From assembly GCA_026127925.1 (NCBI GenBank), contig JAJSLM010000001.1, positions 124,001 through 188,000 on the forward strand: 64,000 nucleotides of DNA, read 5' to 3'. Positions 7,890 to 49,725 of the stretch are shown piece by piece. The notes beneath the pieces were generated by a model, which was given only the letters and a program-made list of their open reading frames with translations, had not been told where the DNA came from and did not search any database. Origin of the DNA: Thermoplasmatales archaeon (GTDB lineage Archaea; Thermoplasmatota; Thermoplasmata; Thermoplasmatales; Thermoplasmataceae). Every line of letters begins with the position of its first letter. Positions within the stretch are counted from its first letter, which is position 1. Position numbers and translations under genes: made by a program.

Positions 7890-9065
7890 ATGTCCTACAC
7901 CCATGCATTGTTCGGTAAAAGTGATTCGGATCTAAAGCTTCAAAATTTATTCCAAAAATACTATTCGAACTGGTCTATGCCCGCAGTCGATAAGCTTCAA
8001 TCCAGGGAGATCGGTTTTATTCCATTCTTCGGAACTATGACACGACACAGATCATTCAATGACGTACGAGAGCTCTCTCACTTTGTTTCAAATGTTGTTC
8101 CTAGACACATATACTATTCTTCTGCGTACTATGAATATCCAGAAGAACGTGTTATGAAAGACAAAAAATGGCTTGGGGCGGAGCTTATATTCGATCTTGA
8201 TGCAGATCACATACCTGGTGCTTCCAAGATGACGTATGAAGAAATTTTAAGAGAAGTGAAGAAGCACACTCATAGACTCATTTTTGAATTTCTTCTAGGA
8301 GACATTGGGCTGGAAGAAAAAGACCTGAAGGTATTCTTCTCTGGCGGGAGGGGATACCACGTGCATGTTGTGAGGGACTGGATCTATTCCCTCAGTTCCG
8401 ATGCTAGGCGCGAGATTGCAAACTATGTTAGAGGCGAAGGTTTTTCTCCGATTGACGTAAGGAGAGCCATGCTAGAAATTCCGAGTAAAATGACTGGGTG
8501 GAAAAAAAGAATAGATGACCAGGTTGTAAATTTCTACACAGTTCTGAATAAAAATGATCAATACGCAGAAATTCTCTTGAAGACTTTTGGCGGTGAGAAA
8601 AAAATTTCAAGTTATATGGAAAATTTGAACAAGATCGTAGCAGGAAAGAACGTCAAAAAAATTGAAGTATTCAGAACAGGAGGGGGCGAGAAATACAAGT
8701 ATATGGATAACAACGATCAATTGGTGTTTTCAAAAATAATGGAATCTGTGATCAGTGATCATCAATGTGAGATAGACGAACCTGTAACTACAGACATTCA
8801 CAGGCTCATTCGAATGCCTCAAAGCCTGCATGGAAAGAGTGGATTGATTGTGAAGCCAATTCATCTGGATGAATTTGATAATTTTGATCCCCTAATTGAT
8901 GCTAGAGTACAGGAATTCTCATACCAAGAGCTGACAGTGGACCTTCCAAGGGATTTTAGTATGAGCTTTGGAGGTGTAAAATATAAACTGTCTGCAGGGT
9001 TGAATAAATTGCCTGGAGATTTTTCAGTTTTTCTTGTCGCAACGAAGATAGCTAGTTTTGTATAA
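7890..9065 (+). CDS. priS: DNA primase small (catalytic) subunit PriS
   Basis: This 391-aa catalytic subunit of the archaeal/eukaryotic-type primase makes RNA/DNA primers for replication together with PriL (not in this window). The metal-binding aspartates are seen in FDLDADH (Asp102, 104, 106), and the nucleotide-binding motif SGGRGYHVHV follows at about residues 151-160. The region around residue 300 (DIHRLIRMPQSLHGKSGL) is also typical: the arginines and His in RMPxSLHxKSGL contact the incoming nucleotide. No fusion to PriL is present. It reads from the compact divergent promoter shared with the protease. Confidence 0.96.
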   Translation: MSYTHALFGKSDSDLKLQNLFQKYYSNWSMPAVDKLQSREIGFIPFFGTMTRHRSFNDVRELSHFVSNVVPRHIYYSSAYYEYPEERVMKDKKWLGAELIFDLDADHIPGASKMTYEEILREVKKHTHRLIFEFLLGDIGLEEKDLKVFFSGGRGYHVHVVRDWIYSLSSDARREIANYVRGEGFSPIDVRRAMLEIPSKMTGWKKRIDDQVVNFYTVLNKNDQYAEILLKTFGGEKKISSYMENLNKIVAGKNVKKIEVFRTGGGEKYKYMDNNDQLVFSKIMESVISDHQCEIDEPVTTDIHRLIRMPQSLHGKSGLIVKPIHLDEFDNFDPLIDARVQEFSYQELTVDLPRDFSMSFGGVKYKLSAGLNKLPGDFSVFLVATKIASFV

Positions 9066-9132
9066 TTATTAATTAAGAATGACTATCATAAGCTTATTAT
9101 AAGTTGAGGTAATGACATATTGGTGTTATAAA

Positions 9133-9552
9133 ATGGAACTGAAAAATAGCAAAACACTGGAGAATTTGAAAGCGGGTTTCGCTGGCGAATCACAGGCAAA
9201 CAGGAGATACATGTATTTTGCGCAGAAGGCCGATGAGGAAGGTTACCAGGAAATAGCCGCAACGTTCAGGACAACTGCAGATGGAGAGACTGCTCATGCG
9301 TTTGGTCACATGAAATACCTTGCCAAGGTAGGAGATCCAGTTACAGGGGAGCCCATAGGAACAACAGAGGAAAATCTCAAGTCTGCGATTGCAGGGGAAA
9401 CTTACGAATATAGCCAGATGTACCCCGGTTTTGCAAAGGTCGCCAGAGAAGAGGGATTTGAGGATATAGCCCACTGGTTTGAAGTTCTTACAAAAGCGGA
9501 GAAGTCCCACGCGAAGAAGTATCAGGAAACTCTTGAAGCAATGTCAAAGTGA
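9133..9552 (+). CDS. rubrerythrin (rubredoxin-less, sulerythrin-like)
   Basis: This ferritin-like diiron protein reduces hydrogen peroxide. Two helix pairs carry Glu ligands (GFAGESQANRRYMYFA, ADGETAHAFGH, AGETYEYSQMYPGFA, KAEKSHAKKY), matching the family. The protein is 139 aa and ends after the four-helix bundle, so the C-terminal rubredoxin domain of classical rubrerythrin is absent, as in sulerythrin of Sulfolobus. An upstream in-frame ATG (9112) exists, but the TATA-like CTTATTATAAG (9092-9102) would place the transcript start near ATG 9133. The next gene overlaps its stop codon, so the two are translated from one message. Confidence 0.93.
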   Translation: MELKNSKTLENLKAGFAGESQANRRYMYFAQKADEEGYQEIAATFRTTADGETAHAFGHMKYLAKVGDPVTGEPIGTTEENLKSAIAGETYEYSQMYPGFAKVAREEGFEDIAHWFEVLTKAEKSHAKKYQETLEAMSK

Positions 9553-10133
9553 GTTTCATGACAACAAATGAGATCTATCGTTCCGAGATAGCTCTCCCAA
9601 TCGACTACGAAAGAGTACGTGAGGAAGAGAATCGCAAAGCGATCAGCATAGAGAAACGGAGACGAGTTTCCACAAGAACATTCAGTTTTCTCTTCGAGTC
9701 AAGAGACCTTGTAAAGAACCAGATTCAGGAAATGGTCTACCTGGAGAATATGAGGACAAATGAAGGGATAAGCGATCTCATAGAAACATATGCCGATCTT
9801 CTTCCAACAGAAAGGACCCTCAGTGTCTCGATGTTCATTGAATTCGAGTCAGAATTACAGATGATGCGCCTCATGAAGGAACTCACAGGCGTGGAGGATC
9901 AGGTTTACCTTGTTTTTGACGGAACCGAAGTTAAGGCTACGCCAGAACTCGGTCGTTCCACGGATACATTGGAAGCCACGTTGCAGTACTTGAAGTTTCA
10001 TTTCGATAACGATGCCTTGGAAAAGTTCAAGAGCTGCAATAGGTGTACAATAGAAGTTAGAAGAAAGAACTATGAAGAAATAGGAAAGTTGCCAGACAAT
10101 CTATTTGCTCAACTCAAAAGTGAGTTAAGGTAA
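9549..10133 (+). CDS. DUF3501 family protein
   Basis: The 194-aa soluble protein matches the DUF3501 pattern: N-terminal YxxxRxxxRKxxxxxKRxRR region, then a YLENMRTNEGISDLIETYADLLPxERxLS core and a C-terminal strand rich in charged residues. Its biochemical function is unknown. In bacteria and archaea DUF3501 genes are commonly beside rubrerythrin and a CCG-domain Fe-S oxidoreductase, and here too it directly follows rubrerythrin, overlapping it by GTGA (start GTG 9549; ATG 9558 is an alternative). A role in peroxide defence or electron transfer to rubrerythrin is inferred from context only. No CCG-domain gene is present in this window. Confidence 0.8.
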   Translation: MSFMTTNEIYRSEIALPIDYERVREEENRKAISIEKRRRVSTRTFSFLFESRDLVKNQIQEMVYLENMRTNEGISDLIETYADLLPTERTLSVSMFIEFESELQMMRLMKELTGVEDQVYLVFDGTEVKATPELGRSTDTLEATLQYLKFHFDNDALEKFKSCNRCTIEVRRKNYEEIGKLPDNLFAQLKSELR

Positions 10134-10204
10134 TTTAATCATATCCAAAATTTTTTTGAAATACAATAGGACAAAATTATCTAATAGGTTTCGCATTACA
10201 TTTT

Positions 10205-11344
10205 ATGATTGAAGCTTCGTTGACAGATGATGAAAAAGATGTTTTGGAATATGTTAAAGAATTTGCGCAAAAGGAAGTCAAGCCACTGGCAAGGGATATA
10301 GACAGAAACAAAGAAGTTCCAAGGAAGATTATAGATAGAATGGCAGAGTTAGGGCTGTTTTCAAGCACTATACCCAAGAAATATGGTGGTTCCGGACTCA
10401 GTTTTAGCTTTTTTGTAAGAGTCATGGAGGAGCTTTCCAAGGCGTGTGCAAGCACAGCACTGGTCCTTGACGGTGCAATTACACTATTTGCGGATCCAGT
10501 TAATCGTTTTGGCAGTGAGACCCTCAAACAGAAGTATCTTACGCGTGTAGCAAGGGGGGAAATAGGGGGTTTGGCTATAACCGAACCAGGTGCAGGCAGC
10601 GATGCAGCATCGATAAGAACAACGGCCAGGAAAGAAGGGAGCAATTATATTATTAATGGAGATAAAATTTTCATTTCCAATGGAAGGCTTGCCAGATTCT
10701 TTGTTGTTGATGCCGTAACCGCGCCTGGGAAAGGGCACAGAGGAATATCGACATTTGTTGTCGATGCAGGCACACCAGGTTTTCTCATAAGCAGGGACAT
10801 AGAAAAACTTGGTATCAGAGGAAGCAGCACAGTGGAGCTGGAGTTTCATGACGTATCGATACCTGAAGAGAATCTGCTCGGGAAGGAAAATGAGGGTTTT
10901 CATGTTATAATGGAAACTCTGGATACGGGTAGGATAGGAATAGCAGCGCAGGCACTGGGAATAGCAGAAGTGGCTTTTGATGAAGCGGCGGATTACATAA
11001 AACAGAGAAAGCAATTCGGCACGGAGATATCCAACTTTGAAGGTATTCAGTTTATGATTGCGGATATGGTTACAAAGATAGATTCGGCAAAACTTCTTAC
11101 ATATAAAGCTGCAGAGATGTTCGATCGTGGGGAGAATGCTGTGAAAATCTCCTCTGAGGCAAAATTGTATGCATCGGACATGGCAATGAAGATCACCACC
11201 GATTGTCTTCAGCTTTTTGGCGGTTACGGTTATACCACGGACATGGATGCAGAACGGCACATGAGGGATGCTAAGATAACTCAAATTTATGAAGGGACGA
11301 ACCAGATCCAGAGAGTTATCATTGCTAGGGAGGCATTAAAATAA
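10205..11344 (+). CDS. acyl-CoA dehydrogenase
   Basis: This 379-aa FAD enzyme oxidises acyl-CoA to enoyl-CoA. It has the N-terminal helical domain, the central beta domain with GGLAITEPGAGSDAAS (about residues 119-134) and the C-terminal domain with QRKQFGTEISNFEGIQFMIADM, and it ends in GGYGYTTDMDAERHMRDAKITQIYEGTNQIQR, the standard signature. The catalytic base is probably the Glu of IYEGTN near residue 364, as in short- and medium-chain members. Chain length cannot be told. TTATCTAA lies about 25 nt before ATG 10205, implying a leaderless mRNA. Its TAA overlaps the ATG of the DUF72 gene by one base. No electron-transfer flavoprotein genes are in the window. Confidence 0.95.
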   Translation: MIEASLTDDEKDVLEYVKEFAQKEVKPLARDIDRNKEVPRKIIDRMAELGLFSSTIPKKYGGSGLSFSFFVRVMEELSKACASTALVLDGAITLFADPVNRFGSETLKQKYLTRVARGEIGGLAITEPGAGSDAASIRTTARKEGSNYIINGDKIFISNGRLARFFVVDAVTAPGKGHRGISTFVVDAGTPGFLISRDIEKLGIRGSSTVELEFHDVSIPEENLLGKENEGFHVIMETLDTGRIGIAAQALGIAEVAFDEAADYIKQRKQFGTEISNFEGIQFMIADMVTKIDSAKLLTYKAAEMFDRGENAVKISSEAKLYASDMAMKITTDCLQLFGGYGYTTDMDAERHMRDAKITQIYEGTNQIQRVIIAREALK

Positions 11345-12165
11345 TGATTTATCTGGGCTGTTCAGGGTGGAACTATGAGGACTGGAGAGGAAGTTTTTAT
11401 CCACGAGGCACTGTAGACCAGCTAAAATACTATTCAAAGGTCTTCGACACCGTTGAGGTTAACTCTACATTCTACAGGGACTTTAAACCCGAAACTCTCA
11501 AGTCATGGATCTCCCGCGTAAGGGAGAATCCGAGATTCAAGTTTACGCTGAAATTGCCGCAGAAAATATCACACGAGGACATCTTCAACTCTACTCAGGC
11601 AGCCATATCTGACCTCTCCGACTTTCTAGAGTCCGAGGTTTCAATCTTTCAGGAAATGAACGCTATGGGTGTGGTTCTTTTTCAGATTCCACCGCATTTT
11701 ACTAAAGGTCTTGAATCCATTCTGATCGATATCCTTTCTCATGTTGATACTTATAAGACAAAATTCTTCGTTGAATTCAGAAATAAAGCCCTGTACAACG
11801 ACATGCAGGTCAGAAATAAGTTGAATCAAATTAATGTAGGTGTTGTGCGTATTGATAGTCCCGATATATTGGTCAACGATTTTCGCGAAGATAATTTTGG
11901 AGACGTATATTTTCGTTTTCATGGACGAAACAAGGCTGATTGGTTTTCTCCCGTTCAGTTGGGCCAGGGAAAATACAATTATCGTTACACTAAGGAAGAA
12001 CTTTCTGACCTGTCATTGACGGTTAAGGAAAGCATAGGGTTTAAAGATGAAATATTCATATATTTTAACAACCACCCAAATGGAAGTGCACCTGTTAACG
12101 CATTGGAGATGTCGGAAATGCTTAATCTAAGTACTGGCATTACTGGGAGGCGCCTGGAAGTGTAG
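11344..12165 (+). CDS. DUF72 (YecE-like) protein
   Basis: This 273-aa protein has the TIM-barrel-like DUF72 fold. The N-terminus YLGCSGWNYEDWRGSFYP and the following FDTVEVNSTFYR are the family signature, and YFRFHGRN and YIYFNNHPNGSAP near the C-terminus complete it. The biochemical role of the family is unknown. It is translated with the acyl-CoA dehydrogenase (TAATG overlap), which may be no more than operon packing. Confidence 0.9.
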   Translation: MIYLGCSGWNYEDWRGSFYPRGTVDQLKYYSKVFDTVEVNSTFYRDFKPETLKSWISRVRENPRFKFTLKLPQKISHEDIFNSTQAAISDLSDFLESEVSIFQEMNAMGVVLFQIPPHFTKGLESILIDILSHVDTYKTKFFVEFRNKALYNDMQVRNKLNQINVGVVRIDSPDILVNDFREDNFGDVYFRFHGRNKADWFSPVQLGQGKYNYRYTKEELSDLSLTVKESIGFKDEIFIYFNNHPNGSAPVNALEMSEMLNLSTGITGRRLEV

Positions 12166-12188
12166 TTATTCTCTTGAATGGTGAACCT

Positions 12189-13439
12189 ATGGTAAAAAAC
12201 AAACATAATTCTGTAATTCGATTGAGATTTACGTATAAAGGCTCCGAATTCGAAGGTGTTCTCATATCGGAAGACCAAGAAACTTATCTTGTAAAGCTAA
12301 GCAACGGGTATAACTTAACAATACCCAGGGATTCGGTCAACATTCTGGAGAGGCGCGAGCTAAACGGGCCCGAAGAAATCGGATCCGGAAAGATCCTCTC
12401 TGGGAAAGGTAAGAAAGTAACTCTCATAGGCAGCGGGGGAACAATTGCGAGCCGTGTGGACTACTCTACAGGGGCTGTTAAGCCTGTTTATGGCACGGAA
12501 TTCCTTCATGGAAACATCTCGAATTTTGAGCATTTTGAGTTGGAGTTAAAGGTGCTTCCTCCGGTATTCAGCGAAGATATGACACCTGTTAACTGGCAAA
12601 ACATAGCTCGTTCTGTATATGACGGCCTCAAGAATAGTGATGGGGTCGTCGTCATGCACGGAACAGACACCATGGCTTACACAGCAAGTGCGCTCGCATT
12701 CATGTTCGAAAAACAGTCCGGCCCGATAATATTCACAGGATCGCAGAGAAGTTCTGACAGACCAAGCAGCGACGCGTTCCTTAACATAGAGGGCTCACTG
12801 GAGTTCGCGTCAACGGATCTGGGCGAAGTTTGTATAGCTATGCATGAAGGGCTTTCTGACACGACAATTAACCTGCTTAGGGGCGTTAGGACAAGAAAGA
12901 TGCATTCTTCGAGAAGGGATGCATTCAAATCTATTGGCTACCCCGAATTGGCAGAATATTCAAATGGAAAAATAAAATTTAAAGATGCATATAGGAAAAC
13001 GGATGACAAGAACGAGCTTAAGGACAAGCTTGAATCCAGAGTCTCGTTAATTTATTTTAACCCTATTCTTACCAATGAAGACTTTGAAACGCTTGCCATG
13101 AATAAACGTGCAGTTGTGCTGGCAGGTACCGGTCTTGGGCATGTTTCAAACAGATTTGTCCCTATCATACGTCAACTTTCCAAAAGTGGTATAAAATTCT
13201 ACATGACCACACAGTGCATATACGGCAGCGTGAACATGAACGTGTACTCAACGGGTAGAGAACTTAGGTCGGCAGGTGTGATTCCGTTAGGAAATATGCT
13301 TTCTGAAGTGGCTCTTGTAAAGAGCATGTTTGTTTTTGCAAATTATGATTCCGAAGAAGTAGACAGGAAGATGAAAGAAAACCTTAGAGGCGAGATCATG
13401 GATCGTGAAGTTCCTTTCGGTAGTGGTGAGGCGGCTTGA
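12189..13439 (+). CDS. gatD: glutamyl-tRNA(Gln) amidotransferase subunit D
   Basis: GatD is the asparaginase-like subunit of the archaeal amidotransferase that converts Glu-tRNA(Gln) to Gln-tRNA(Gln); it releases ammonia from glutamine or asparagine for GatE. An N-terminal SH3-like domain (about residues 1-75) precedes the asparaginase domain. The threonine motifs are visible: IGSGGTIASRVD and VVMHGTDTMAYTA, with the AGTGLGH region near residue 317. ATG 12189 is chosen because GGTGA lies a few bases upstream; ATG 12174 would have no visible ribosome-binding site. It overlaps gatE by 4 nt. Confidence 0.95.
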   Translation: MVKNKHNSVIRLRFTYKGSEFEGVLISEDQETYLVKLSNGYNLTIPRDSVNILERRELNGPEEIGSGKILSGKGKKVTLIGSGGTIASRVDYSTGAVKPVYGTEFLHGNISNFEHFELELKVLPPVFSEDMTPVNWQNIARSVYDGLKNSDGVVVMHGTDTMAYTASALAFMFEKQSGPIIFTGSQRSSDRPSSDAFLNIEGSLEFASTDLGEVCIAMHEGLSDTTINLLRGVRTRKMHSSRRDAFKSIGYPELAEYSNGKIKFKDAYRKTDDKNELKDKLESRVSLIYFNPILTNEDFETLAMNKRAVVLAGTGLGHVSNRFVPIIRQLSKSGIKFYMTTQCIYGSVNMNVYSTGRELRSAGVIPLGNMLSEVALVKSMFVFANYDSEEVDRKMKENLRGEIMDREVPFGSGEAA

Positions 13440-35209: not shown

Positions 35210-36139
35210 ATGGTTAATGGAAAAAAAGTCTTTTATTATATCTTTTCATTGTTTATAATAGCTGGTGTCGCGATACTAATCATTTATTTTTTCGCTTTCC
35301 TCCTTAAATTAATTCCGACACAATACGTCAAATTTGTTTATGCGGCCATAATAGCCACTACGGGCTTTATTGTTATATTTTTTGTCAACAATTTAATCAG
35401 GCATAAATTATCTGCTAACAAGTCAATGCGTAAAGGAAGGACGTATATACTCTTTCTGATAAATATCCTTGCATACTTTGTGCTCTCTGTAGCGATACTT
35501 GCTTCACTAGGAGTTAATGTTTATTCGGTAATTGTTGGTGGTGCTTTTCTCTCAGTTATTCTGGGGCTGGCGGTTCAGGGTGTCCTTGGAAATATTGCTT
35601 CAGGGTTGCTGATAACTATCACAAAACCCTTTAAACTTGGCGATAAAGTTTGGGTTCTTTCTTGGAATTCCTCGTCCGCATTGATTACACTGCAATTTTC
35701 CATATTTTTACCTAAGTATTTCTCTGCCGATGCTCTGTTCTCACAGGGTATTAGCGGTCAAGTCCAGGATATATCTCTTAATTATACTAAATTAAAGGAA
35801 GCTGACGGAAATGTAGTGGTGCTTCCTAACAGTATTGTTTCTACTGGCGCATTTGTTTTTCTTGGTGATCTCAAAAGTATAAGAATCCGGTACGAAGTAC
35901 CGAAATCCTTGAGTCCAGATTTTGTATACGCAAAGACCGAGGAATGCTTATCGAACTTCCTTTCGAAAATAAACTCCAAGAGCATGTTTATGGATGAAAC
36001 CACACTTAACACTTACGTCATGATCGTTTCCTTGCATCTTTCCTCACACGAGCTAATAACAACGAGAAGTGATATAATAAACGAGATCAAAGTAAATCTT
36101 GAGAAGTTCAGAATAAAAGTATCACCCATTCAGGATTGA
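35210..36139 (+). CDS. MscS-like mechanosensitive channel, copy 2
   Basis: The 309-aa channel has the same layout as copy 1: three membrane helices, pore helix VIVGGAFLSVILGLAVQGVLGNIASGLL, KPFKLGDKV, and the inserted segment with FLPKYFSADALFSQ before GQVQDISLNYTKL. It is probably co-transcribed with the 67-aa gene. It is less similar to copies 1 and 3 in the N-terminal helices than in the pore and beta domain. Confidence 0.9.
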   Translation: MVNGKKVFYYIFSLFIIAGVAILIIYFFAFLLKLIPTQYVKFVYAAIIATTGFIVIFFVNNLIRHKLSANKSMRKGRTYILFLINILAYFVLSVAILASLGVNVYSVIVGGAFLSVILGLAVQGVLGNIASGLLITITKPFKLGDKVWVLSWNSSSALITLQFSIFLPKYFSADALFSQGISGQVQDISLNYTKLKEADGNVVVLPNSIVSTGAFVFLGDLKSIRIRYEVPKSLSPDFVYAKTEECLSNFLSKINSKSMFMDETTLNTYVMIVSLHLSSHELITTRSDIINEIKVNLEKFRIKVSPIQD

Positions 36140-36534
36140 ATCTAGAGTATGTCATTTCCCATGTCAAATTTTGAAATTCCAAGTCAATTCGGTAGATTTT
36201 CTCTCAGCGGATTAGATTAAAAAATATTCGTTTAGTAGAATCATTGCCGTTAGAAATTGCGTAGGTAATCGATGTTACTATTGTAGTTCTCCTTGGGAGT
36301 TATAAACGGAAAACTGCAACCGGTGGTTTCACGGTGCTAAACCAGCCATCAATTTTGTGTCCGTATTTTGTGTAGGTGTCAGAATACCTATTTTAGGTAG
36401 GTGGCTTAGGCTAAAGTAATTAAAAAAAGTCCGTTCTTTCACTCTGAAGTGTTCTTAGAGATTTTAATTAAAACGATTCTTACTCTTTTAGTTCACTTAG
36501 ACAAAAGTTAAATTGAAGAAAGCATAAGCAAATT
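36140..36534 (+). other. intergenic stretch with two short hairpins
   Basis: No gene is visible. Two hairpins can be drawn: TGGTTT (36324-36329) with AAACCA (36339-36344) around a 9-nt loop, and ACCTA (36386-36390) with TAGGT (36394-36398) around TTT. They are followed by TTAATTAAAAAAAG, which could be the terminator for copy 2 or the end of a small RNA. AAAAGTTAAATTG (about 36502-36514) is the likely promoter of the third MscS gene. Confidence 0.35.
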
Positions 36535-37455
36535 GTGTCTACCAATCGGATTAATCATTTTAAAATTCTTGCTTCGTTAGTATTCTTATTAATAGGTATT
36601 CTCATAGTTATCTACGTAACAGTATTTTTTCTGCACCAAATACCAGTTAAATATGCAAGGTTCGTAGATGCAGGTGTTATAGCACTTGTTTCATATCTGA
36701 TCTTGAAAATTATAACTCTTTATGTGAACGATGTGCTTTTGAAATATTTAGACCGTGCAAAGGTGCACCCATTTGTCTTTATGATAAATATGGTCGGATA
36801 CTTTGTCATTGCACTCGCGGTAGTTGCTTCGCTGGGCATAGATGTTTCCTCCTTGATCCTTGGCAGTACTTTCCTGGCAGCGGTTCTTGGACTCGCTGCA
36901 CAGAGTGTTCTTTCAAACCAATTTTCAGGTCTCTTAATTATAATAACCAAGCCTTTTAAGATAGGTGATAGAGTTTGGATTCACGTCTGGCAATTCAGTA
37001 TTGCTTATGGTGTAATAGTGCCCAAATACTTCTCTAGTGACTTTCTTTACAATAACGGTTTCCTTGGCGTAATAGAGGATATATCAATCAACTTCACTAC
37101 CTTGAGAACTGATGGCGGTGAAATTGTAAAAATTGCCAATAATGTTCTTACCCAGGGGGCATTCAGGCTGATAACAGATACACCAATCGTTCAGGTACGA
37201 TACGAGATTCCAAAATACCTTGATATTTCTCAGTTCCGTGATGAGATAACTCAGAAAGTTTCCACAATATCCGGAATAGATGGTGATCCTATCTTAAATA
37301 TAGACGAAACAACGCTGAATACTTACGTTATAATGGTCAAGGCAAAATTCCGCGGAACTACACCTGAAGCTGCCAGAAGCAAAATTATTGAAAATATTAT
37401 CCGGATAGTGGAACCAAAAAGATTTTCATCAGCTTCATTAAGTAATTTCAAGTAA
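36535..37455 (+). CDS. MscS-like mechanosensitive channel, copy 3
   Basis: The 306-aa channel shows pore helix LILGSTFLAAVLGLAAQSVLSNQFSGLL, KPFKIGDRVW and the same insertion (WQFSIAYGVIVPKYFSSD) before GVIEDISINFTTL. The closest match within the window is copy 1 in this insertion. GTG 36535 is the start, with an A/T-rich box about 25 nt upstream. Three channels within 3.6 kb suggest strong demand for osmotic or tension release, or different gating thresholds. Confidence 0.9.
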   Translation: MSTNRINHFKILASLVFLLIGILIVIYVTVFFLHQIPVKYARFVDAGVIALVSYLILKIITLYVNDVLLKYLDRAKVHPFVFMINMVGYFVIALAVVASLGIDVSSLILGSTFLAAVLGLAAQSVLSNQFSGLLIIITKPFKIGDRVWIHVWQFSIAYGVIVPKYFSSDFLYNNGFLGVIEDISINFTTLRTDGGEIVKIANNVLTQGAFRLITDTPIVQVRYEIPKYLDISQFRDEITQKVSTISGIDGDPILNIDETTLNTYVIMVKAKFRGTTPEAARSKIIENIIRIVEPKRFSSASLSNFK

Positions 37456-42007: not shown

Positions 42008-42934
42008 ATGTTCATAAAAGACATCGATACCCTTCTGGATAGGCAGTGCATCATTTCTTTTGAAAGCGACAGTGAGATATCCAAGATTCTTTCCGCGCAT
42101 CAGGTTGTCTCGATTGTCAGGGTAAGATTATCGAAAACAGGTGGTTTTGCACTTTACAATTTTGAAAATCTTGATGATTTTAGCAAGGAGGAGCAGAAAG
42201 CCTTGACAAAATACAAAATAAAAACAACAAGTGATTCTGTTATGCTGTATTCCGACCTAACCGGTCGCAAATTCATTGGCGCATTCAAGCAGCTTAACGG
42301 TGTATCATCTGTCGTAATAGATGCAGTATTTTTTATGGGTTCCTCGTACTTTTTGTATTTTAGATATCATCATAATGACGAAGCCAATGTTACTTCAGCC
42401 ATTAGGGAGGCATTCAAAGATTTCAAGAGATTTGCGGTTAGGTACATAGGTCCAAGCCCAGGAATAGTCGCAACGTTCTCCGAGATTTCTCAGTACATTC
42501 CATTAAAGTATGTTGAGATAAGTAGTTCAGTACCTCCGTCATCCATAGACATAAACTCAGATCCAGTAATCGTGAACCTTGGCGTGAGCTGGTACAGAGA
42601 ATTAAAATTTTTGATAGAAGAAGAGACCCGTGGAGTATTTTACGACAACAGTTCACTTTTAAAAGGAGAAAAGGAATGGATTCATGCCATATCTCCTTCC
42701 CAGAGAATCTATGAGACCTCGTTCATGAATCCCGTCGTGAAATTCCTTATTAATGAAAATTCGAAAGAACAGGTTGTGAGCCTCGGCATGCCACAAAAAT
42801 TAAGCGGTAAGGATTTTTACATATCGACATTTGTTCCTGACATCACACTCCCGGAGTTCTTCACTGTGTTCTATCGGGCAGTTGAAAAGTTCCAGGACTG
42901 GAAACTTGACGTTAACCTAGTTGATACAATATAA
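42008..42934 (+). CDS. hypothetical protein next to the VWA-PP2C-kinase genes, 308 aa
   Basis: This soluble protein is not recognised. The first 90 residues (ending LYSDLTGRKFIGAF) and a central part with SSYFLYFRYHHND and VRYIGPSPGIVATFSEISQYIP suggest two alpha/beta domains. The C-terminal part, KDFYISTFVPDITLPEFFTVFYRAV, is also mixed alpha/beta. There is no membrane helix or DNA-binding motif that I can identify. TTTATTTATTCAT (41980-41992) precedes ATG 42008 by about 24 nt, so it has its own leaderless promoter. It stands 311 nt before the VWA gene; a functional link is only positional. Confidence 0.75.
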   Translation: MFIKDIDTLLDRQCIISFESDSEISKILSAHQVVSIVRVRLSKTGGFALYNFENLDDFSKEEQKALTKYKIKTTSDSVMLYSDLTGRKFIGAFKQLNGVSSVVIDAVFFMGSSYFLYFRYHHNDEANVTSAIREAFKDFKRFAVRYIGPSPGIVATFSEISQYIPLKYVEISSSVPPSSIDINSDPVIVNLGVSWYRELKFLIEEETRGVFYDNSSLLKGEKEWIHAISPSQRIYETSFMNPVVKFLINENSKEQVVSLGMPQKLSGKDFYISTFVPDITLPEFFTVFYRAVEKFQDWKLDVNLVDTI

Positions 42935-43245: not shown

Positions 43246-44088
43246 ATGTATGAATCAGAAATAAGTAGACGAAACCCTGGGCTGTTCATCTTCCTTATTG
43301 ACCAGTCCCGATCGATGAGCCATAAACTTAGTGGTACAATGAGATCCAAAGCGCAGGAAGCCGCAGATGCGGTTAACAGGCAAATTTACGAGCTTATATA
43401 TAGATGCACAAAAACGGACGGTGTACGCGATTATTTTCATATAGGGATAGTTGGATACGGATCATCTTCAGATCTGGCTGATTCGTTGATAGCAGATGAA
43501 ACGATCGTGCCAATTTCTAGATTGGCACAGAATCCATTGAGAACCGAAAGAAGAAAGGAACGGGCAGACGGATCTCAAGGAGTAGAAGAAGGAGACGAGT
43601 TCGAGTTTCCGATATGGTTTGATCCTGTAGCCCGCTCAAATACTCCAATGGTGAAAGCACTTAACCTCGTAAAGGAATGGGTGGATGACTGGGTTGCTGA
43701 ACATAAAGATTCGTATCCTCCGGTCGTTATACATATTACCGATGGTTCTGCGACCGATGGCGACCCTGTTCCAGTGGCGAATTCTATCATGGATATATCT
43801 ACAGCGGACGGGAATGTGCTCATGTGGAACTGCCATTTGTCTGAATCTCGCGGTGTGACACCTCTTGAATTCCCATCATCTGAAGGCGTTCTCCCGCCTC
43901 AGGACAAATTTGCAAAGGAGCTTTTTACAATGTCCAGTACTTTGCCGAAAAGTTTTGTGGATGTGGCCGCAGAGCGTTCTTTGACTGTAACTCAAAATTC
44001 AAGAGCCTACGTATTCAACGCCGGTCTGGACGAGTTGATAGAACTTTTGGACATTGGAACAAGAGCTCCAACAGACAATATGCAGTGA
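43246..44088 (+). CDS. von Willebrand factor A (TerY-like) domain protein
   Basis: The 280-aa cytoplasmic protein is a stand-alone VWA domain. The MIDAS metal site is seen as Asp19-x-Ser21-x-Ser23 in LIDQSRSM, with a Thr in ARSNTPM and Asp in HITDGSATDG completing it. It probably binds a protein partner through the metal ion. The next gene is a PP2C phosphatase and a protein kinase faces them; that combination is known as the TerY-P triad in bacteria. ATG 43246 follows a TATTTGCATAAC box (43226-43237). Confidence 0.9.
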   Translation: MYESEISRRNPGLFIFLIDQSRSMSHKLSGTMRSKAQEAADAVNRQIYELIYRCTKTDGVRDYFHIGIVGYGSSSDLADSLIADETIVPISRLAQNPLRTERRKERADGSQGVEEGDEFEFPIWFDPVARSNTPMVKALNLVKEWVDDWVAEHKDSYPPVVIHITDGSATDGDPVPVANSIMDISTADGNVLMWNCHLSESRGVTPLEFPSSEGVLPPQDKFAKELFTMSSTLPKSFVDVAAERSLTVTQNSRAYVFNAGLDELIELLDIGTRAPTDNMQ

Positions 44089-44095
44089 TCTTCAT

Positions 44096-44827
44096 TTGAA
44101 AGCATTCACTTTCCAGATGAGCAAGCTGGGTAACGAGGAGAGTGAATGTGAGGATTCAATTTCTTTTAACCTTAAAAAAAAGAGGTTTGCAATTGCAGAC
44201 GGTGCAAGTTCCTCCATGTTCTCAGATGTCTGGGCTACCTGTCTTACGTCAAATGTTATAGATCTCGAAACGGATCTTTTCAAAAACGCTTCAGATCTAT
44301 TCCACATACTTCTTCCAACAGCACGGGAGGAATGGTATTCTAGAATAGAATGGCGCAACCTTAAATGGTTTCAGACCAACAAATCTTTTCAAGGATCTTA
44401 TTCCACTCTATTATACCTTGAAATAAAAAGATGGGAAGAGCGGTATCTATATCGAACGTTATGCGTTGGAGATTCATGCATGTTTGTTCTTGGTCCTGGA
44501 GATGCGTTTTATTCGTTCCCTTACAAAAAAGCGTCACAATTTAATAATACACCTAAACTAATATGGACAGGTAGAAAGACACAGACAAACAATTTGGATG
44601 CACTCATTCCGGATTTTGTCACTGCCAGCGGTTATATTACGGGGAAAAATGAAATAATTCTTGCAACAGATGCCTTATCGAAATGGCTTATAGAAACTCG
44701 TAATTTCCCAATCTTGAAGGATCTTGTTGTCAGTGATTCGGAGATGAGGGAATATTTCTCGAACGAAATTGATGCCAAGAGGATGAGAAACGATGATATC
44801 AGCCTTGTTTATCTTAGTCTTACATAG
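44096..44827 (+). CDS. PP2C-type protein phosphatase
   Basis: The 243-aa metal-dependent Ser/Thr phosphatase has the PP2C metal sites: Asp20 in CEDSISF, Asp35-Gly36 in AIADGAS, Asp in CVGDSCMFV, Asp in LATDALS, and the C-terminal NDDISLVYLSL. It should act on the product of the kinase encoded opposite. Start TTG 44096 is preferred: GTGAT lies 5 nt upstream and the codon follows the VWA stop by 7 nt; TTG 44054 (overlapping the VWA gene) and ATG 44117 are alternatives. Its end overlaps the kinase gene by 8 nt on the other strand. Confidence 0.88.
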   Translation: MKAFTFQMSKLGNEESECEDSISFNLKKKRFAIADGASSSMFSDVWATCLTSNVIDLETDLFKNASDLFHILLPTAREEWYSRIEWRNLKWFQTNKSFQGSYSTLLYLEIKRWEERYLYRTLCVGDSCMFVLGPGDAFYSFPYKKASQFNNTPKLIWTGRKTQTNNLDALIPDFVTASGYITGKNEIILATDALSKWLIETRNFPILKDLVVSDSEMREYFSNEIDAKRMRNDDISLVYLSLT

Positions 44828-46634
44828 AAAGAAGAGTATTCGGGTTATCTCCATCCCACAGGACTGGTTTGCTCAAAGCTTCCTTCATAAGATTCAATAA
44901 TTTCTTGGTCTTTTGGTCCTTTATTTTCATAATCTCTGCATATACCTTTGAGTTTTCTAGAGATTTGAAATCGTTCTTCCCAAAGATCAATCGGTCAGGA
45001 TTATCATCATTAAAGTCGGACCATAGCGACGGTTTCTCGGAAACTGCAAGAAGAGAAGTGTAGATTATAAGTGTTGAAAAATTGTCAAGTTTTTCTGAGT
45101 AGTCTTCTCTAGTCCTATTGGGGTGCTGGAAGTCTCCGTGACCTATTTCCACGGACTTTGTTCCCTTGAATCCCGGGATGAACATCCCATCATAATCCAC
45201 GAAAAAAATTTCGTTCTTATCATTGATTATTATGTTGTCTCCCGACAGATCGCCATGAGATATGCCGATATCCTGAAGAGAAGCAATGTCTTTGACGAGT
45301 GTTTCCGCTACCAATTTTATCTTTTTCGGACGGTTAAGATTCGATTCTACGAAGTTATTCAAGCTCTGGCCTTCGCACCATTCCATTTTGAGGATGGGAA
45401 AATAAAACGTATCGGATTTCTTAGTTTTTATGCCATCCTTAAAGTACTTGAAATGTACCAGGAATTCGCGATTCCCAGAATTGGTTTCAAGATAATTGCT
45501 TATCTTTTCGTACCTCATGTTTATTTCCGTAGATTTTTTAGTAAAGCACTTTAAGGCGTAGATCTTGCCGTCATCAAACTTGACTTTATAGACCGAGCCA
45601 AAATTTCCAGCCGCATAAACGAGCATACTTTGGTTCCTTGGATTCCTGATTACATTCCAAGCAGACGAATTTCCAAGGGTGGGATTTATGCTTTTAGCAA
45701 CGTTTTGAAAGGCCTGATCATAATCCTGTCCCATTGGCCATGAACCGCGGTACTGGCCAGCTGAAATCGTTTTGTTTGATCTCGGTGTCGCTGCTGGAGC
45801 TCCTGTTTTTGTAATGCCATGGGCGATCGGTTGTCTCGTGCTAGCTGTTGACTGTACGTGAGAAGTTACCGGTTTCATCCTCGAACCGGTGGTGGATATC
45901 GTTCCGGATCGTGTTCCTAGATTCAGTTTCCGGTGGGTGGCAGGAGAAGGCTGATTGAAATTCGATTTCTGTTGGCCAGGATTGATGGTACTTGTTATCG
46001 GATTGGTTGTCTTCGTTTGAGTATTTTGGGAAACCTGTGGAGTAACCTGAGCCTTACGACTAGTTGGGTGTTTCATCTGAATCGCAAAGGAAAGAATCTC
46101 CGCCCATTGGTCTGCTTTTGAAACCTTGAAAGCGTATTCAACATTGCCCGATCTAACGGTAAGTGTGCTTTTCAGAATGCCTTTGGGACGAACTGAATCT
46201 ATGCTGTCGATTCTAATAACCTTCTTTTCTTTCCCTTCGATCTTTTGAAAAACTAATGAATTGTCAACAATCGAAAGGATTCCGGCCTCACCATTTAATT
46301 TTGATTTTTCCTTGATATATTCTGGCCGTGGATTTATTAGTGCAAGATTCTTTTTCCAAATAGCAGTTTCTGGAACAGTAAACACAATCTTTTGCTCGAC
46401 TCCTTTAACTACGACAGTCAACCTCCTTCTCAATATTCCTCCAGCATGGGTATTCAAGATCGATGAAAATGGTATGACTTTCCTTGGAACATGTTCATTC
46501 GATTCAAAAACGAGAGAATCCGAAGTAAGCCTGAGAAATCCAAACTCATGGTCACAAACGGCAGATGACCAAAGGAGGCTATTTTTTTTAAGCAAAACAT
46601 TCATCCTAGATACAGCATATAGTTTACTCTTCAT
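44820..46634 (-). CDS. protein kinase with two N-terminal PH/GRAM-like repeats
   Basis: The 604-aa protein has two related beta-rich units (about residues 12-98 and 115-187: strand pattern with DSLVFES...KVIPFSSI and NSLVFQK...KVIRIDSI), a polar Ser/Thr/Gln/Pro-rich linker (188-325) and a C-terminal kinase domain. Kinase residues are the Gly-rich AAGNFGSVYKV, Lys362 (YALKCF), HGDLSGDN with Asp462 and Asn467, and Asp480 in VDYDG. The VDYDGMF and GHGDFQHPNR segments resemble COG4248-type kinases of TerY-P loci. It is encoded against the VWA-PP2C pair. ATG 46634 is chosen; the 33-residue upstream extension (to 46733) overlaps the divergent gene. Confidence 0.88.
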   Translation of the reverse strand: MKSKLYAVSRMNVLLKKNSLLWSSAVCDHEFGFLRLTSDSLVFESNEHVPRKVIPFSSILNTHAGGILRRRLTVVVKGVEQKIVFTVPETAIWKKNLALINPRPEYIKEKSKLNGEAGILSIVDNSLVFQKIEGKEKKVIRIDSIDSVRPKGILKSTLTVRSGNVEYAFKVSKADQWAEILSFAIQMKHPTSRKAQVTPQVSQNTQTKTTNPITSTINPGQQKSNFNQPSPATHRKLNLGTRSGTISTTGSRMKPVTSHVQSTASTRQPIAHGITKTGAPAATPRSNKTISAGQYRGSWPMGQDYDQAFQNVAKSINPTLGNSSAWNVIRNPRNQSMLVYAAGNFGSVYKVKFDDGKIYALKCFTKKSTEINMRYEKISNYLETNSGNREFLVHFKYFKDGIKTKKSDTFYFPILKMEWCEGQSLNNFVESNLNRPKKIKLVAETLVKDIASLQDIGISHGDLSGDNIIINDKNEIFFVDYDGMFIPGFKGTKSVEIGHGDFQHPNRTREDYSEKLDNFSTLIIYTSLLAVSEKPSLWSDFNDDNPDRLIFGKNDFKSLENSKVYAEIMKIKDQKTKKLLNLMKEALSKPVLWDGDNPNTLLSM

Positions 46635-47633: not shown

Positions 47634-48473
47634 TCAGAGGAGTTCGCCAAAGTTATAGCCCCTCTCAACCAACCACTCATCTTTCTGGCTGTTGCATTCC
47701 ACATTATACTTTTCTGCGAGCTTTGCTATTCGTCCCACAACCTCCCTCTTCCAGACATTTGATTCATTGAATTCTTTTCTGCCATCATGCCTAGGAAGAT
47801 ATCGCTCCATCATGGAATTTGCCCCTTTGTATGAAGAATAAAAGTCATAGATTACTCTAGAACCCGTTGATACAGCTGCTTCAAAGATAGCTCTTAAATT
47901 CTCATCATCGTCGTTGAAATTACGTATAATCGGTCCCAAAAATATCCAAGTCTTGATACCTTCATTATTGAGTTTTCCTAAAGCCGTTATCCTTGCAGAG
48001 GGTGAAGGCGTTTTCGTTTCTATCATAAGAGACTTTGCTCGATTGATTGTAGTGATCGTAATCCCGACATCGGCTGTGCTTCTGTGCAGTGATAGGACAT
48101 CAACATCTCTCGTAACAAGTGGAGATTTTGTCTGTACCGTTACTCTAAAACCATTTCTAAGCAGGATCTCAAGTATCTTTCTGGATAATCTGTATGTTGC
48201 CTCTACGGGTTGATATGGATCTGTTATTGTACCCAGCCCAACAATGCCTCTTGGAAGCCCAATAATATCTCTCTTTAGAATAAGGTCTATGTTCTTCTTG
48301 ACGTAAACTATCTCGCCCCAGTTCGAAGCGGCGTCCTTGTGGTGTGTATAATCTATTGCATAACAGTAGAGGCATCTGTGAAAACATCCTGAATAAGGGT
48401 TTATAGCATAGTCTAGTTCCATCATTCCGCTTTTAGAGATCGCCTTTGAAACCGAGTACTCAATGATCTTCAT
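47634..48473 (-). CDS. SPL-like radical SAM protein
   Basis: The 279-aa enzyme has the radical SAM cluster motif Cys30-x3-Cys34-x2-Cys37 in NPYSGCFHRCLYCYA. The motif NPYxGCxHxCxYCYA and the downstream TDPYQPVEATYRLSRKIL and TVQTKSP match the spore-photoproduct-lyase-like group (COG1533), in which many members are of unknown function. It starts one base after NreA, so both are translated from one message; a DNA-repair or nucleotide-modification role is inferred only from this link. Confidence 0.9.
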   Translation of the reverse strand: MKIIEYSVSKAISKSGMMELDYAINPYSGCFHRCLYCYAIDYTHHKDAASNWGEIVYVKKNIDLILKRDIIGLPRGIVGLGTITDPYQPVEATYRLSRKILEILLRNGFRVTVQTKSPLVTRDVDVLSLHRSTADVGITITTINRAKSLMIETKTPSPSARITALGKLNNEGIKTWIFLGPIIRNFNDDDENLRAIFEAAVSTGSRVIYDFYSSYKGANSMMERYLPRHDGRKEFNESNVWKREVVGRIAKLAEKYNVECNSQKDEWLVERGYNFGELL

Positions 48474-48474
48474 T

Positions 48475-49725
48475 TCAAATCGAAAAAAATCTTTCCAGAT
48501 TGTTGTACTTTAACGTCTTTACCACAGCGGATTTCTGTAACCAGATCTCCAGAGGAACCTTAAGGAATTTGGATATGAATCTCAGGGCATCATCAAGTGT
48601 GTCAAACTCTGCGGGCTTCATTTTAAAGAGTTCCCTCATATTTTCTCTGACATACCATACCCCGACAGGAAGGCTGAAGCCAGGATATATCTCTCTCCAA
48701 GTAATTGCACCTCCACTTCTCCTCATCTCATTCAACTTCTCTCCAATGGCAAGTCTTGTCGAGTAGTAGCATCCGCCAATTCCTGGGTAGTCTTTCCTTC
48801 CAAAGTACCCCTCGTTGTCTATTTCTGTGTAAGTCTCTTCCCCCCACTGATTCCATGTTGTTCCTCTTCCCCAAGCTTCACCCCACTCGTATATCCAGTT
48901 AGAAGGGGTAAGAATTGCTATGAAGAGGTTGCCGTTGGTTCTTCTCACATACGTCAGGAATTTGTCTATCTGTGGATAGTCCTTGCTTTTCTCTATAAGA
49001 TCATCGGAAAGGTTCTTGTCAACTGCAGTTATTGACCATCTTGTTGGAACAACCTTTCTCATTTTCTTTGTTCCTATAGCTCCAACGCTGAGGATTTTTG
49101 ATATCTTTGAAACATCTTCATTTCTTGAATACAGGAACTTCATTGCATCCATAGCTTTTAAATCAGTGTCTCCATAAACTTTCTCGACACTCAAGCTGGG
49201 AGAGGAATAATCGGATTGGAACTTCAAAAGCGGAGCGGATGGGCCCATGGGTGGCGTGTTTTCGTCAAGAATGACAGACATATCAGAAAGATTCTTTTCC
49301 AGGGTCATGTCGACTTCAACATATTTTTCAGAGAGAGCCATGAGTTGTAGCTCCCGGAACAACTTATCAGGATCTGCTGCGTTCTGAACATAAACGTCTG
49401 TTCCGCCCCTAATCATTGATAAGCGCATGCTCAGAAAATCTTCCAGTTGAAGATTCATCCATTCCTTTGGGTTCTCGTAGGAAGATGTATCTCCATGAAC
49501 CTGCGGAACAGAGGGGTACACCTTTACCTTGGGATATCCGTATCGTCCAACAAATACGCTGGGAGGCGAAGATCCGCTGATCCTGTTTCCCTGAGCAATG
49601 TTCACTCTCGGTTTAACGATAGACTTTACAGTAATAGGACAAAATGAAAGTCCGCAAAGAAGTTTAGCACCCCTGCATTTTGTACAGAGTGAGGCAGGAA
49701 TCTTAAATTTTGCTTTGAATTCCAT
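48475..49725 (-). CDS. nreA: NreA-type DNA-repair protein
   Basis: The 416-aa protein belongs to the archaeal Nre family, which in Haloferax acts with PCNA in repair of alkylation/mitomycin damage. The N-terminal zinc site is Cys14, 17, 24 and 29 (SLCTKCRGAKLLCGLSFCP), followed by GSSPPSVFVGRYGYPKV, the family signature. The C-terminus ends in NNLERFFSI, a degenerate PCNA-interacting (Q-x-x-L-x-x-F-F) motif with Asn in the Gln position. A TATA-like box lies about 30 nt before ATG 49725. It heads a two-gene operon with the radical SAM gene. Confidence 0.93.
   Translation of the reverse strand: MEFKAKFKIPASLCTKCRGAKLLCGLSFCPITVKSIVKPRVNIAQGNRISGSSPPSVFVGRYGYPKVKVYPSVPQVHGDTSSYENPKEWMNLQLEDFLSMRLSMIRGGTDVYVQNAADPDKLFRELQLMALSEKYVEVDMTLEKNLSDMSVILDENTPPMGPSAPLLKFQSDYSSPSLSVEKVYGDTDLKAMDAMKFLYSRNEDVSKISKILSVGAIGTKKMRKVVPTRWSITAVDKNLSDDLIEKSKDYPQIDKFLTYVRRTNGNLFIAILTPSNWIYEWGEAWGRGTTWNQWGEETYTEIDNEGYFGRKDYPGIGGCYYSTRLAIGEKLNEMRRSGGAITWREIYPGFSLPVGVWYVRENMRELFKMKPAEFDTLDDALRFISKFLKVPLEIWLQKSAVVKTLKYNNLERFFSI

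What the first reader, a model, noticed from the sequence alone, without database searches (positions are those of the whole stretch)
43246..46634. Archaeal VWA / PP2C / kinase trio of the TerY-P type
Three signalling genes lie together: a stand-alone VWA protein with a complete MIDAS, a PP2C phosphatase with all metal residues, and a protein kinase with intact catalytic residues. In bacteria this set is called the TerY-P triad and is found in tellurium-resistance and stress or defence neighbourhoods. Here no ter genes are present, the kinase is on the opposite strand with its 3' end overlapping the phosphatase by 8 nt, and neighbours are an unknown 308-aa protein and a metallophosphoesterase. 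A reversible phosphorylation switch read by the VWA protein is inferred.
Basis: partly seen in the sequence, partly recalled or inferred. Interest (0 to 1): 0.8.

Follow-up and report, generated by a model that had tools for sequence, protein, structure and literature searches.

The report
Archaeal TerY-type kinase–phosphatase switch cassette
Three neighbouring genes (a metal-binding VWA adaptor, a phosphatase and a kinase) form one self-contained phosphorylation switch, related to a bacterial anti-phage system; heat- and acid-loving archaea have kept it almost family-wide, flipped its kinase gene and repeatedly changed the kinase's sensing end.

Summary
The trio is real: TerY (43246-44088 +), PP2C (about 44096-44827 +) and kinase (44820-46634 -), with an 8-nt 3' overlap and intact catalytic residues. 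PADLOC's TerY, PP2C and STK_OB models match at E 3e-87, 3e-29 and 2e-57. It is not a chance cluster. All 46 archaeal loci with both partners readable show >TerY >PP2C <kinase, the 3' ends overlapping in 34. Within the host family (Thermoplasma, Cuniculiplasma, Thermogymnomonas and kin) the three genes co-occur or are absent together. No other neighbour is shared, so the 308-aa gene and the phosphoesterase are not parts. In one genus the same three genes alone sit between psmA and SBDS, which are directly adjacent in most relatives where both could be read.

It is a distinct archaeal clade of the TerY-P triad. The kinase is inverted (0 of 29 bacterial loci), lacks the C-terminal OB region of the anti-phage version, and carries N-terminal modules: transmembrane helices, a PH-like fold (doubled here) or an Ig-like sandwich, each confined to one subclade. 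No TerD occurs. Purifying selection shows function. The module moved laterally as a unit.

Best reading: a stand-alone sensor-kinase/phosphatase/VWA switch. Signal, targets and any antiviral role are untested. New variant of a known kind.

The parts
43246..44088 (+). TerY-type stand-alone VWA protein, 280 aa, complete MIDAS (D19xSxS, T133, D166)
   Evidence: PADLOC TerY E 2.8e-87 over residues 2-274; MIDAS residues conserved in 50 archaeal and 32 bacterial TerY; dN/dS 0.021 against the sister species
44096..44827 (+). PP2C phosphatase, 243 aa from TTG 44096 (the longest ORF starts at TTG 44054 and would overlap TerY by 35 nt); all metal residues present
   Evidence: PADLOC PP2C 3.2e-29, Pfam PP2C_2 at the cut-off; start chosen from orthologue lengths; dN/dS 0.088
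44820..46634 (-). Ser/Thr-type protein kinase of the TerY-P kind, 604 aa, convergent with PP2C
   Evidence: Pfam Pkinase 1.1e-12; PADLOC STK_OB 1.6e-57 but only to profile positions 39-281 of 562
44823..45740 (-). kinase catalytic domain at the C-terminus (residues 299-604)
   Evidence: catalytic residues invariant in archaeal orthologues; dN/dS 0.030
45741..46079 (-). Thr/Pro/Gln-rich, probably disordered linker of the kinase (residues 186-298)
   Evidence: 62% identity to the sister species, dN/dS 0.25; no Pfam match
46326..46586 (-). first PH-like domain of the kinase (about residues 17-103)
   Evidence: AlphaFold2: seven strands plus C-terminal helix, pLDDT mostly 80-91; Foldseek top hits are tandem-PH proteins, best E 8.8e-6; aligned with the single copy of relatives
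46080..46319 (-). second PH-like domain of the kinase (about residues 106-185), found only in this genus among the genomes read
   Evidence: second set of strands plus helix in the model; present in G001 (L044) and absent in the other relatives
44820..44827 (.). 8-nt overlap of the PP2C and kinase 3' ends
   Evidence: sequence; 3' overlap in 34 of 46 archaeal loci

Best explanation
A self-contained three-gene phosphorylation switch: an archaeal clade of the TerY-P triad. Shown: the three genes travel, are kept and are absent together; they are under purifying selection; all catalytic and metal residues are intact; and the kinase's N-terminal module differs between subclades (membrane helices, PH-like, Ig-like) while its catalytic domain is conserved. 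Inferred: the N-terminal module positions the kinase at, or lets it sense, a ligand or surface (in this genome through two PH-like domains). The kinase then phosphorylates TerY and/or further targets, PP2C reverses this, and the MIDAS-bearing TerY acts as the phosphorylation-dependent adaptor that passes the state to the rest of the cell. The biological output (antiviral or stress response) is not determined by the sequence.
For: Profile matches to all three TerY-P components. Same order and orientation in 46 of 46 archaeal loci. All-or-none co-occurrence of TerY, PP2C and kinase in 61 genomes: 29, 29 and 28, the missing kinase being a broken reading in a partial MAG. No other family is shared by the neighbourhoods. 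The trio alone sits between psmA and SBDS in genus g15, a pair directly adjacent in 13 relatives and outgroups. dN/dS 0.02-0.09 for the whole genes. Sensor types map onto three clades with the minimum possible 2 changes. PH-like and Ig-like folds predicted; 2 to 6 predicted membrane spans in the third class.
Against: No biochemical, expression or genetic data. No effector gene is attached, so the output is unknown. The kinase and phosphatase could act mainly on proteins encoded elsewhere. Ligand binding by the PH-like domains is not shown; the fold matches are local (TM-scores 0.3-0.4 over the two-domain model, rmsd mostly 12-15 A, probably because domain packing differs).
Confidence: 0.75

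Rival explanations
1. It is an archaeal antiviral defence system that works like the stand-alone bacterial TerY-P system shown to protect against T7-like phages: infection is sensed by the kinase module and the phosphorylation state of TerY triggers a defensive response.
For: Closest bacterial relatives are stand-alone >TerY>PP2C>STK operons of the kind scored by PADLOC; such systems with an OB-fold kinase protect against phages (PMC7699616, PMC11090510). The module moved laterally between archaeal lineages, as defence modules do.
Against: The OB region of the tested anti-phage kinase is absent. Flanking genes differ between genera, and those recognised look like housekeeping genes; the trio is present in nearly all genera of the family, one copy each. 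No virus data.
Confidence: 0.35
2. A general stress or cell-envelope signalling device (acid, membrane or metal stress) rather than defence, analogous to bacterial kinase/PP2C couples, with TerY as the metal-dependent output adaptor.
For: Near-universal in the family except one clade of three genera; kinase N-termini are membrane-spanning or PH-like in two of three classes; flanks look like housekeeping genes; strong purifying selection.
Against: Absence from a whole well-sequenced clade of the same family shows it is not indispensable. The Ig-like class has no evident membrane link. Metal sensing is only a hypothesis from the literature on bacterial triads (PMC11090510).
Confidence: 0.4
3. 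The three genes are functionally unrelated and lie together by accident.
For: The kinase is on the opposite strand, so the three are not one operon.
Against: 46 of 46 loci in the same arrangement with unrelated flanks, all-or-none co-occurrence, joint transfer as a unit, largely congruent gene trees.
Confidence: 0.01

Closest known systems
Stand-alone TerY-P anti-phage system (Gao et al. 2020; PADLOC TerY/PP2C/STK_OB, for example Pantoea, Pseudomonas and Burkholderiales loci L118-L128)
   Same: Homologous TerY (41-49% identity to the window), PP2C and kinase domain; three genes alone; TerY before PP2C
   Different: Bacterial kinase is co-directional and carries a C-terminal OB region, catalytic domain first; archaeal kinase is inverted, catalytic domain last, with other N-terminal modules and no OB region. 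About half of the bacterial kinases (14 of 29) have Arg at the beta-3 Lys position; all 46 archaeal ones have Lys, and a GxxG instead of GxxA loop
TerY-P triads of Ter stress operons and of CoCoNuT (McrBC-type) restriction islands (Anantharaman et al. 2012; PMC11090510)
   Same: VWA + PP2C + STK
   Different: No TerD in any of 28 genomes, no gene family conserved beside the trio; kinase without the described C-terminal zinc ribbon
PPM phosphatase of Thermoplasma volcanium active on phosphotyrosine (Dahche et al. 2009, seen only as a reference)
   Same: Archaeal PP2C-family phosphatase from the same family of organisms
   Different: Probably the second, canonical PP2C of that species (G024 708345-708857), not the triad member at 570521-571201; inferred from remembered gene numbering and position only

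Membership tests
TerY-P triad (general) | TerY-type VWA with complete MIDAS | tested here: met
   PADLOC TerY 2.8e-87; MIDAS residues conserved
TerY-P triad (general) | PP2C phosphatase with metal residues adjacent to TerY | tested here: met
   PADLOC PP2C 3.2e-29; residues conserved
TerY-P triad (general) | Protein kinase of the TerY-P kind in the same cluster | tested here: met
   STK_OB profile 1.6e-57 over the kinase domain; catalytic residues
TerY-P triad (general) | Three genes conserved as a unit | tested here: met
   46 of 46 loci; all-or-none co-occurrence
Stand-alone anti-phage TerY-P (STK-OB) | Kinase fused to a C-terminal OB fold | tested here: not met
   Match stops at profile position 281 of 562 and the protein ends; bacterial controls match 1-554
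Stand-alone anti-phage TerY-P (STK-OB) | Kinase co-directional in one operon (seen in all bacterial relatives read here) | tested here: not met
   Opposite strand in 46 of 46 archaeal loci; same strand in 29 of 29 bacterial loci with a kinase hit
Stand-alone anti-phage TerY-P (STK-OB) | Protects against viruses | not testable with these tools
   Needs deletion or expression and virus challenge
Tellurium-resistance (Ter) system | TerD-family and other ter genes present | tested here: not met
   No TerD in 28 genomes including the window's own; TerC and others not searched
CoCoNuT-associated TerY-P | Kinase with C-terminal zinc ribbon; CnuH/CnuE genes nearby | tested here: not met
   The kinase domain is the C-terminus; no conserved neighbours

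The most novel reading that the evidence does not exclude
The cassette is a general archaeal signalling platform and not chiefly a defence system: a portable kinase/phosphatase/VWA switch whose sensor end has been replaced by unrelated modules (membrane, PH-like, Ig-like). It may be a domesticated descendant of a bacterial anti-phage triad, exchanged between acidophilic archaea as a unit.
Probability: 0.4. Interest if true: 0.7.

Novelty: new variant of a known kind. Interest (0 to 1): 0.56.

Why it matters
Protein-kinase signalling in archaea is poorly understood, and kinases and phosphatases there are rarely seen as a defined pair. Here a kinase, its probable phosphatase and an adaptor are fixed together across most of an archaeal family, with natural sensor swaps that suggest which end receives the signal. 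The same three parts serve anti-phage defence in bacteria, so the archaeal form lets one ask whether a defence switch was turned into an ordinary regulator, or the reverse. Thermoplasma and Cuniculiplasma, culturable genera, carry it, so the question can be tested.

Tried and rejected
The 308-aa Ta1207-family gene and the metallophosphoesterase as parts: rejected, present near the trio only in a few relatives of one subclade. Ter system: rejected for TerD. Identifying this PP2C with the characterised T. volcanium phosphatase: dropped, because that species has a second PP2C whose position fits better. Mobility signs: no convincing terminal repeats around the trio in the window or in L034. Structured RNA: no Rfam match. 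Pfam for the kinase N-termini: nothing above cut-off, hence structure prediction. PDB sequence search: generic kinases only, nothing for TerY. Phages: no TerY relatives. Cas1 as a yardstick of patchiness: present in 15 of the 23 family genomes sampled against 19 of 23 for the trio, not decisive. A long maximum-likelihood run timed out and was replaced by quicker trees.

Full report
WHAT IS THERE. The window carries TerY (43246-44088 +), PP2C (longest ORF 44054-44827 +; probable start TTG 44096) and, convergent to it, a 604-aa protein kinase (46634 down to 44820). The last 8 nt of PP2C and kinase overlap (44820-44827). Pfam sees the kinase (1.1e-12), PP2C_2 (at the cut-off) and weak VWA matches. 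PADLOC's TerY-P models are far stronger: TerY 2.8e-87, PP2C 3.2e-29, STK_OB 1.6e-57. MIDAS, PP2C metal residues and kinase catalytic residues are complete and conserved. Against the sister species, dN/dS is 0.021 (TerY), 0.088 (PP2C) and 0.084 (kinase: 0.030 for the catalytic domain, 0.25 for the linker), so all three are maintained.

WHOSE GENOME. G024 and G013 have the lengths I remember for T. volcanium and Cuniculiplasma divulgatum. The nearest named record is a Thermoplasmata MAG, YS3.bin24 (98% identical TerY).

A CONSERVED UNIT. TerY is present in 29 of 37 genomes of the family and in none of 24 genomes of other families of the order. In 390 genomes spread over the phylum it occurs only in this family, in one genome of another family of the same class (G361, whose TerY is identical to that of a MAG clustering with Candidatus Sysuiplasma), and, as a distant type, in G404. 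Kinase and PP2C orthologues occur in the same genomes and no others: 29 TerY, 29 PP2C, 28 kinases. The exception is a broken reading in the partial MAG G025; G034 shows only a weak, unrelated kinase match, and the G008 kinase carries a stop or frameshift in a draft genome. All 46 archaeal loci with both partners readable have >TerY >PP2C <kinase; 34 have overlapping 3' ends. Among 48 neighbourhoods from three subclades no other gene family recurs in more than a minority. In genus g15 the trio, and nothing else, lies between the proteasome alpha gene psmA and SBDS (gene names from my reading of the sequences). These two genes are directly adjacent (36-119 nt between alignment ends) in 13 of the other genomes, including Thermoplasma and the outgroups; in several others psmA lies farther away or was not in the short locus fetched. 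This natural insertion marks the limits of the unit and excludes the 308-aa protein and the phosphoesterase.

HOW IT DIFFERS FROM BACTERIA. The genome-wide scan found bacterial relatives in Pseudomonadota (Pantoea, Pseudomonas, Burkholderiales, magnetospirilla) and some other phyla; plasmids of Calothrix and Acaryochloris also carry them. Wherever a kinase hit is present the bacterial kinase is co-directional with TerY (29 of 29). The archaeal TerY proteins of the convergent loci form one group (SH-aLRT 99); the G404 protein lies outside it on a very long branch. Bacterial kinases of the stand-alone kind match the STK_OB profile end to end (1-554 of 562), while archaeal ones match only its kinase half, and the protein ends there. 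The archaeal kinase instead carries an N-terminal region of about 100-300 aa of three unrelated kinds: 2 to 6 predicted membrane spans (Thermoplasma, g2, g15, Sysuiplasma), a PH-like domain (the window's clade), or an Ig/fibronectin-like sandwich (Cuniculiplasma, E-plasma and others). AlphaFold2 gives two copies of seven strands plus helix for the window protein (mean pLDDT 78), and Foldseek's best hits are tandem-PH proteins (BBS5, FARP, FACT subunits, Rtt106). The Ig-like class gives a sandwich (mean pLDDT 71; core 87-94) that matches filamin and fibronectin III domains. On the tree of the joined trio the three sensor types are three clean clades (support 99-100; 2 changes, the minimum).

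HISTORY. The three gene trees agree with each other in most well-supported splits. They conflict with RpoB plus EF-2. The trio data reject the grouping of g11 with g15 seen in the marker tree (p-AU 6e-66; support for that grouping in the marker tree only 89), and the markers reject the PH clade (p 7.5e-6, simple model). G361 lies inside the membrane clade of the trio although it is an outgroup by RpoB and EF-2. The cassette has therefore most likely moved between lineages, sensor included. The three genera without it (g10, g18, g19) form one clade (support 100): one loss, or primary absence. The direction of the original transfer between bacteria and archaea was not tested.

HOW IT PROBABLY WORKS. 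Shown: one unit, intact enzymes, selection, changeable N-terminal module. Inferred: that module senses or localises; the kinase phosphorylates TerY and/or other proteins; PP2C resets; TerY is the metal-dependent adaptor. For bacterial triads a metal-sensing phosphorylation switch has been proposed, and the OB-fold version protects against phages (PMC11090510, PMC7699616). Whether the archaeal form serves antiviral defence or stress signalling cannot be decided from sequence. Missing OB region, apparently housekeeping flanks and near-universality within most of the family lean away from a plain copy of the bacterial defence system; lateral transfer as a unit leans towards something of adaptive, perhaps defensive, use.

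LITERATURE. Full-text searches for TerY with archaea, and for archaeal kinases and PP2C with Thermoplasma, found no description of this cassette. The library holds open-licence papers only, and Anantharaman et al. 2012 itself could not be read, so an earlier mention is possible.

VERDICT. Observation confirmed; interpretation partly supported. A new archaeal variant of the known TerY-P kind, with an inverted kinase gene, reversed kinase domain order and exchanged sensor modules.

Noticed in passing
L034 8254-11922 and L041 (genus g15): The trio interrupts the psmA-SBDS pair, which is directly adjacent in most relatives where both genes could be read; a natural insertion that delimits the cassette.
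   Followed up: yes
L066 and L067 (G404, another Thermoplasmatota family): A distant TerY with PP2C and kinase in another arrangement (<PP2C >TerY <kinase) in L066, and a second TerY/PP2C pair in L067; apparently an independent acquisition.
   Followed up: partly
L127 (Chthonomonas MAG) 8001-13353: Three TerY-like ORFs followed by a PP2C and two overlapping kinase ORFs with nearly identical kinase domains; looks like tandem duplication.
   Followed up: no
kinase alignment, window kinase residue 362: About half of the bacterial TerY-P kinases (14 of 29) have Arg in place of the ATP-binding Lys of strand beta 3; all 46 archaeal kinases have Lys.
   Followed up: partly
window 47634-49725 (radical SAM and Nre genes): The radical SAM-Nre pair also lies near the trio in L031, L033, L042 and L045, in inverted orientation in L031 and L033; old synteny or a loose link to DNA repair.
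   Followed up: no
window 42008-42934: Ta1207-family gene (Pfam E 8e-58, no known function); family members also lie near the trio in L040, L045 and L076.
   Followed up: partly
G024 C1:708345-708857 (probably Thermoplasma volcanium): A second, canonical PP2C outside the trio, probably the biochemically characterised phosphatase; Cuniculiplasma-like genomes G013 and G029 have one as well.
   Followed up: partly
L053 (G009) about 8 kb upstream of TerY: A second, more distant trio-type PP2C (23% identity to the window's) near the cassette.
   Followed up: no
window 35210-37455: Two neighbouring genes that look like MscS-type channels, not examined further.
   Followed up: no
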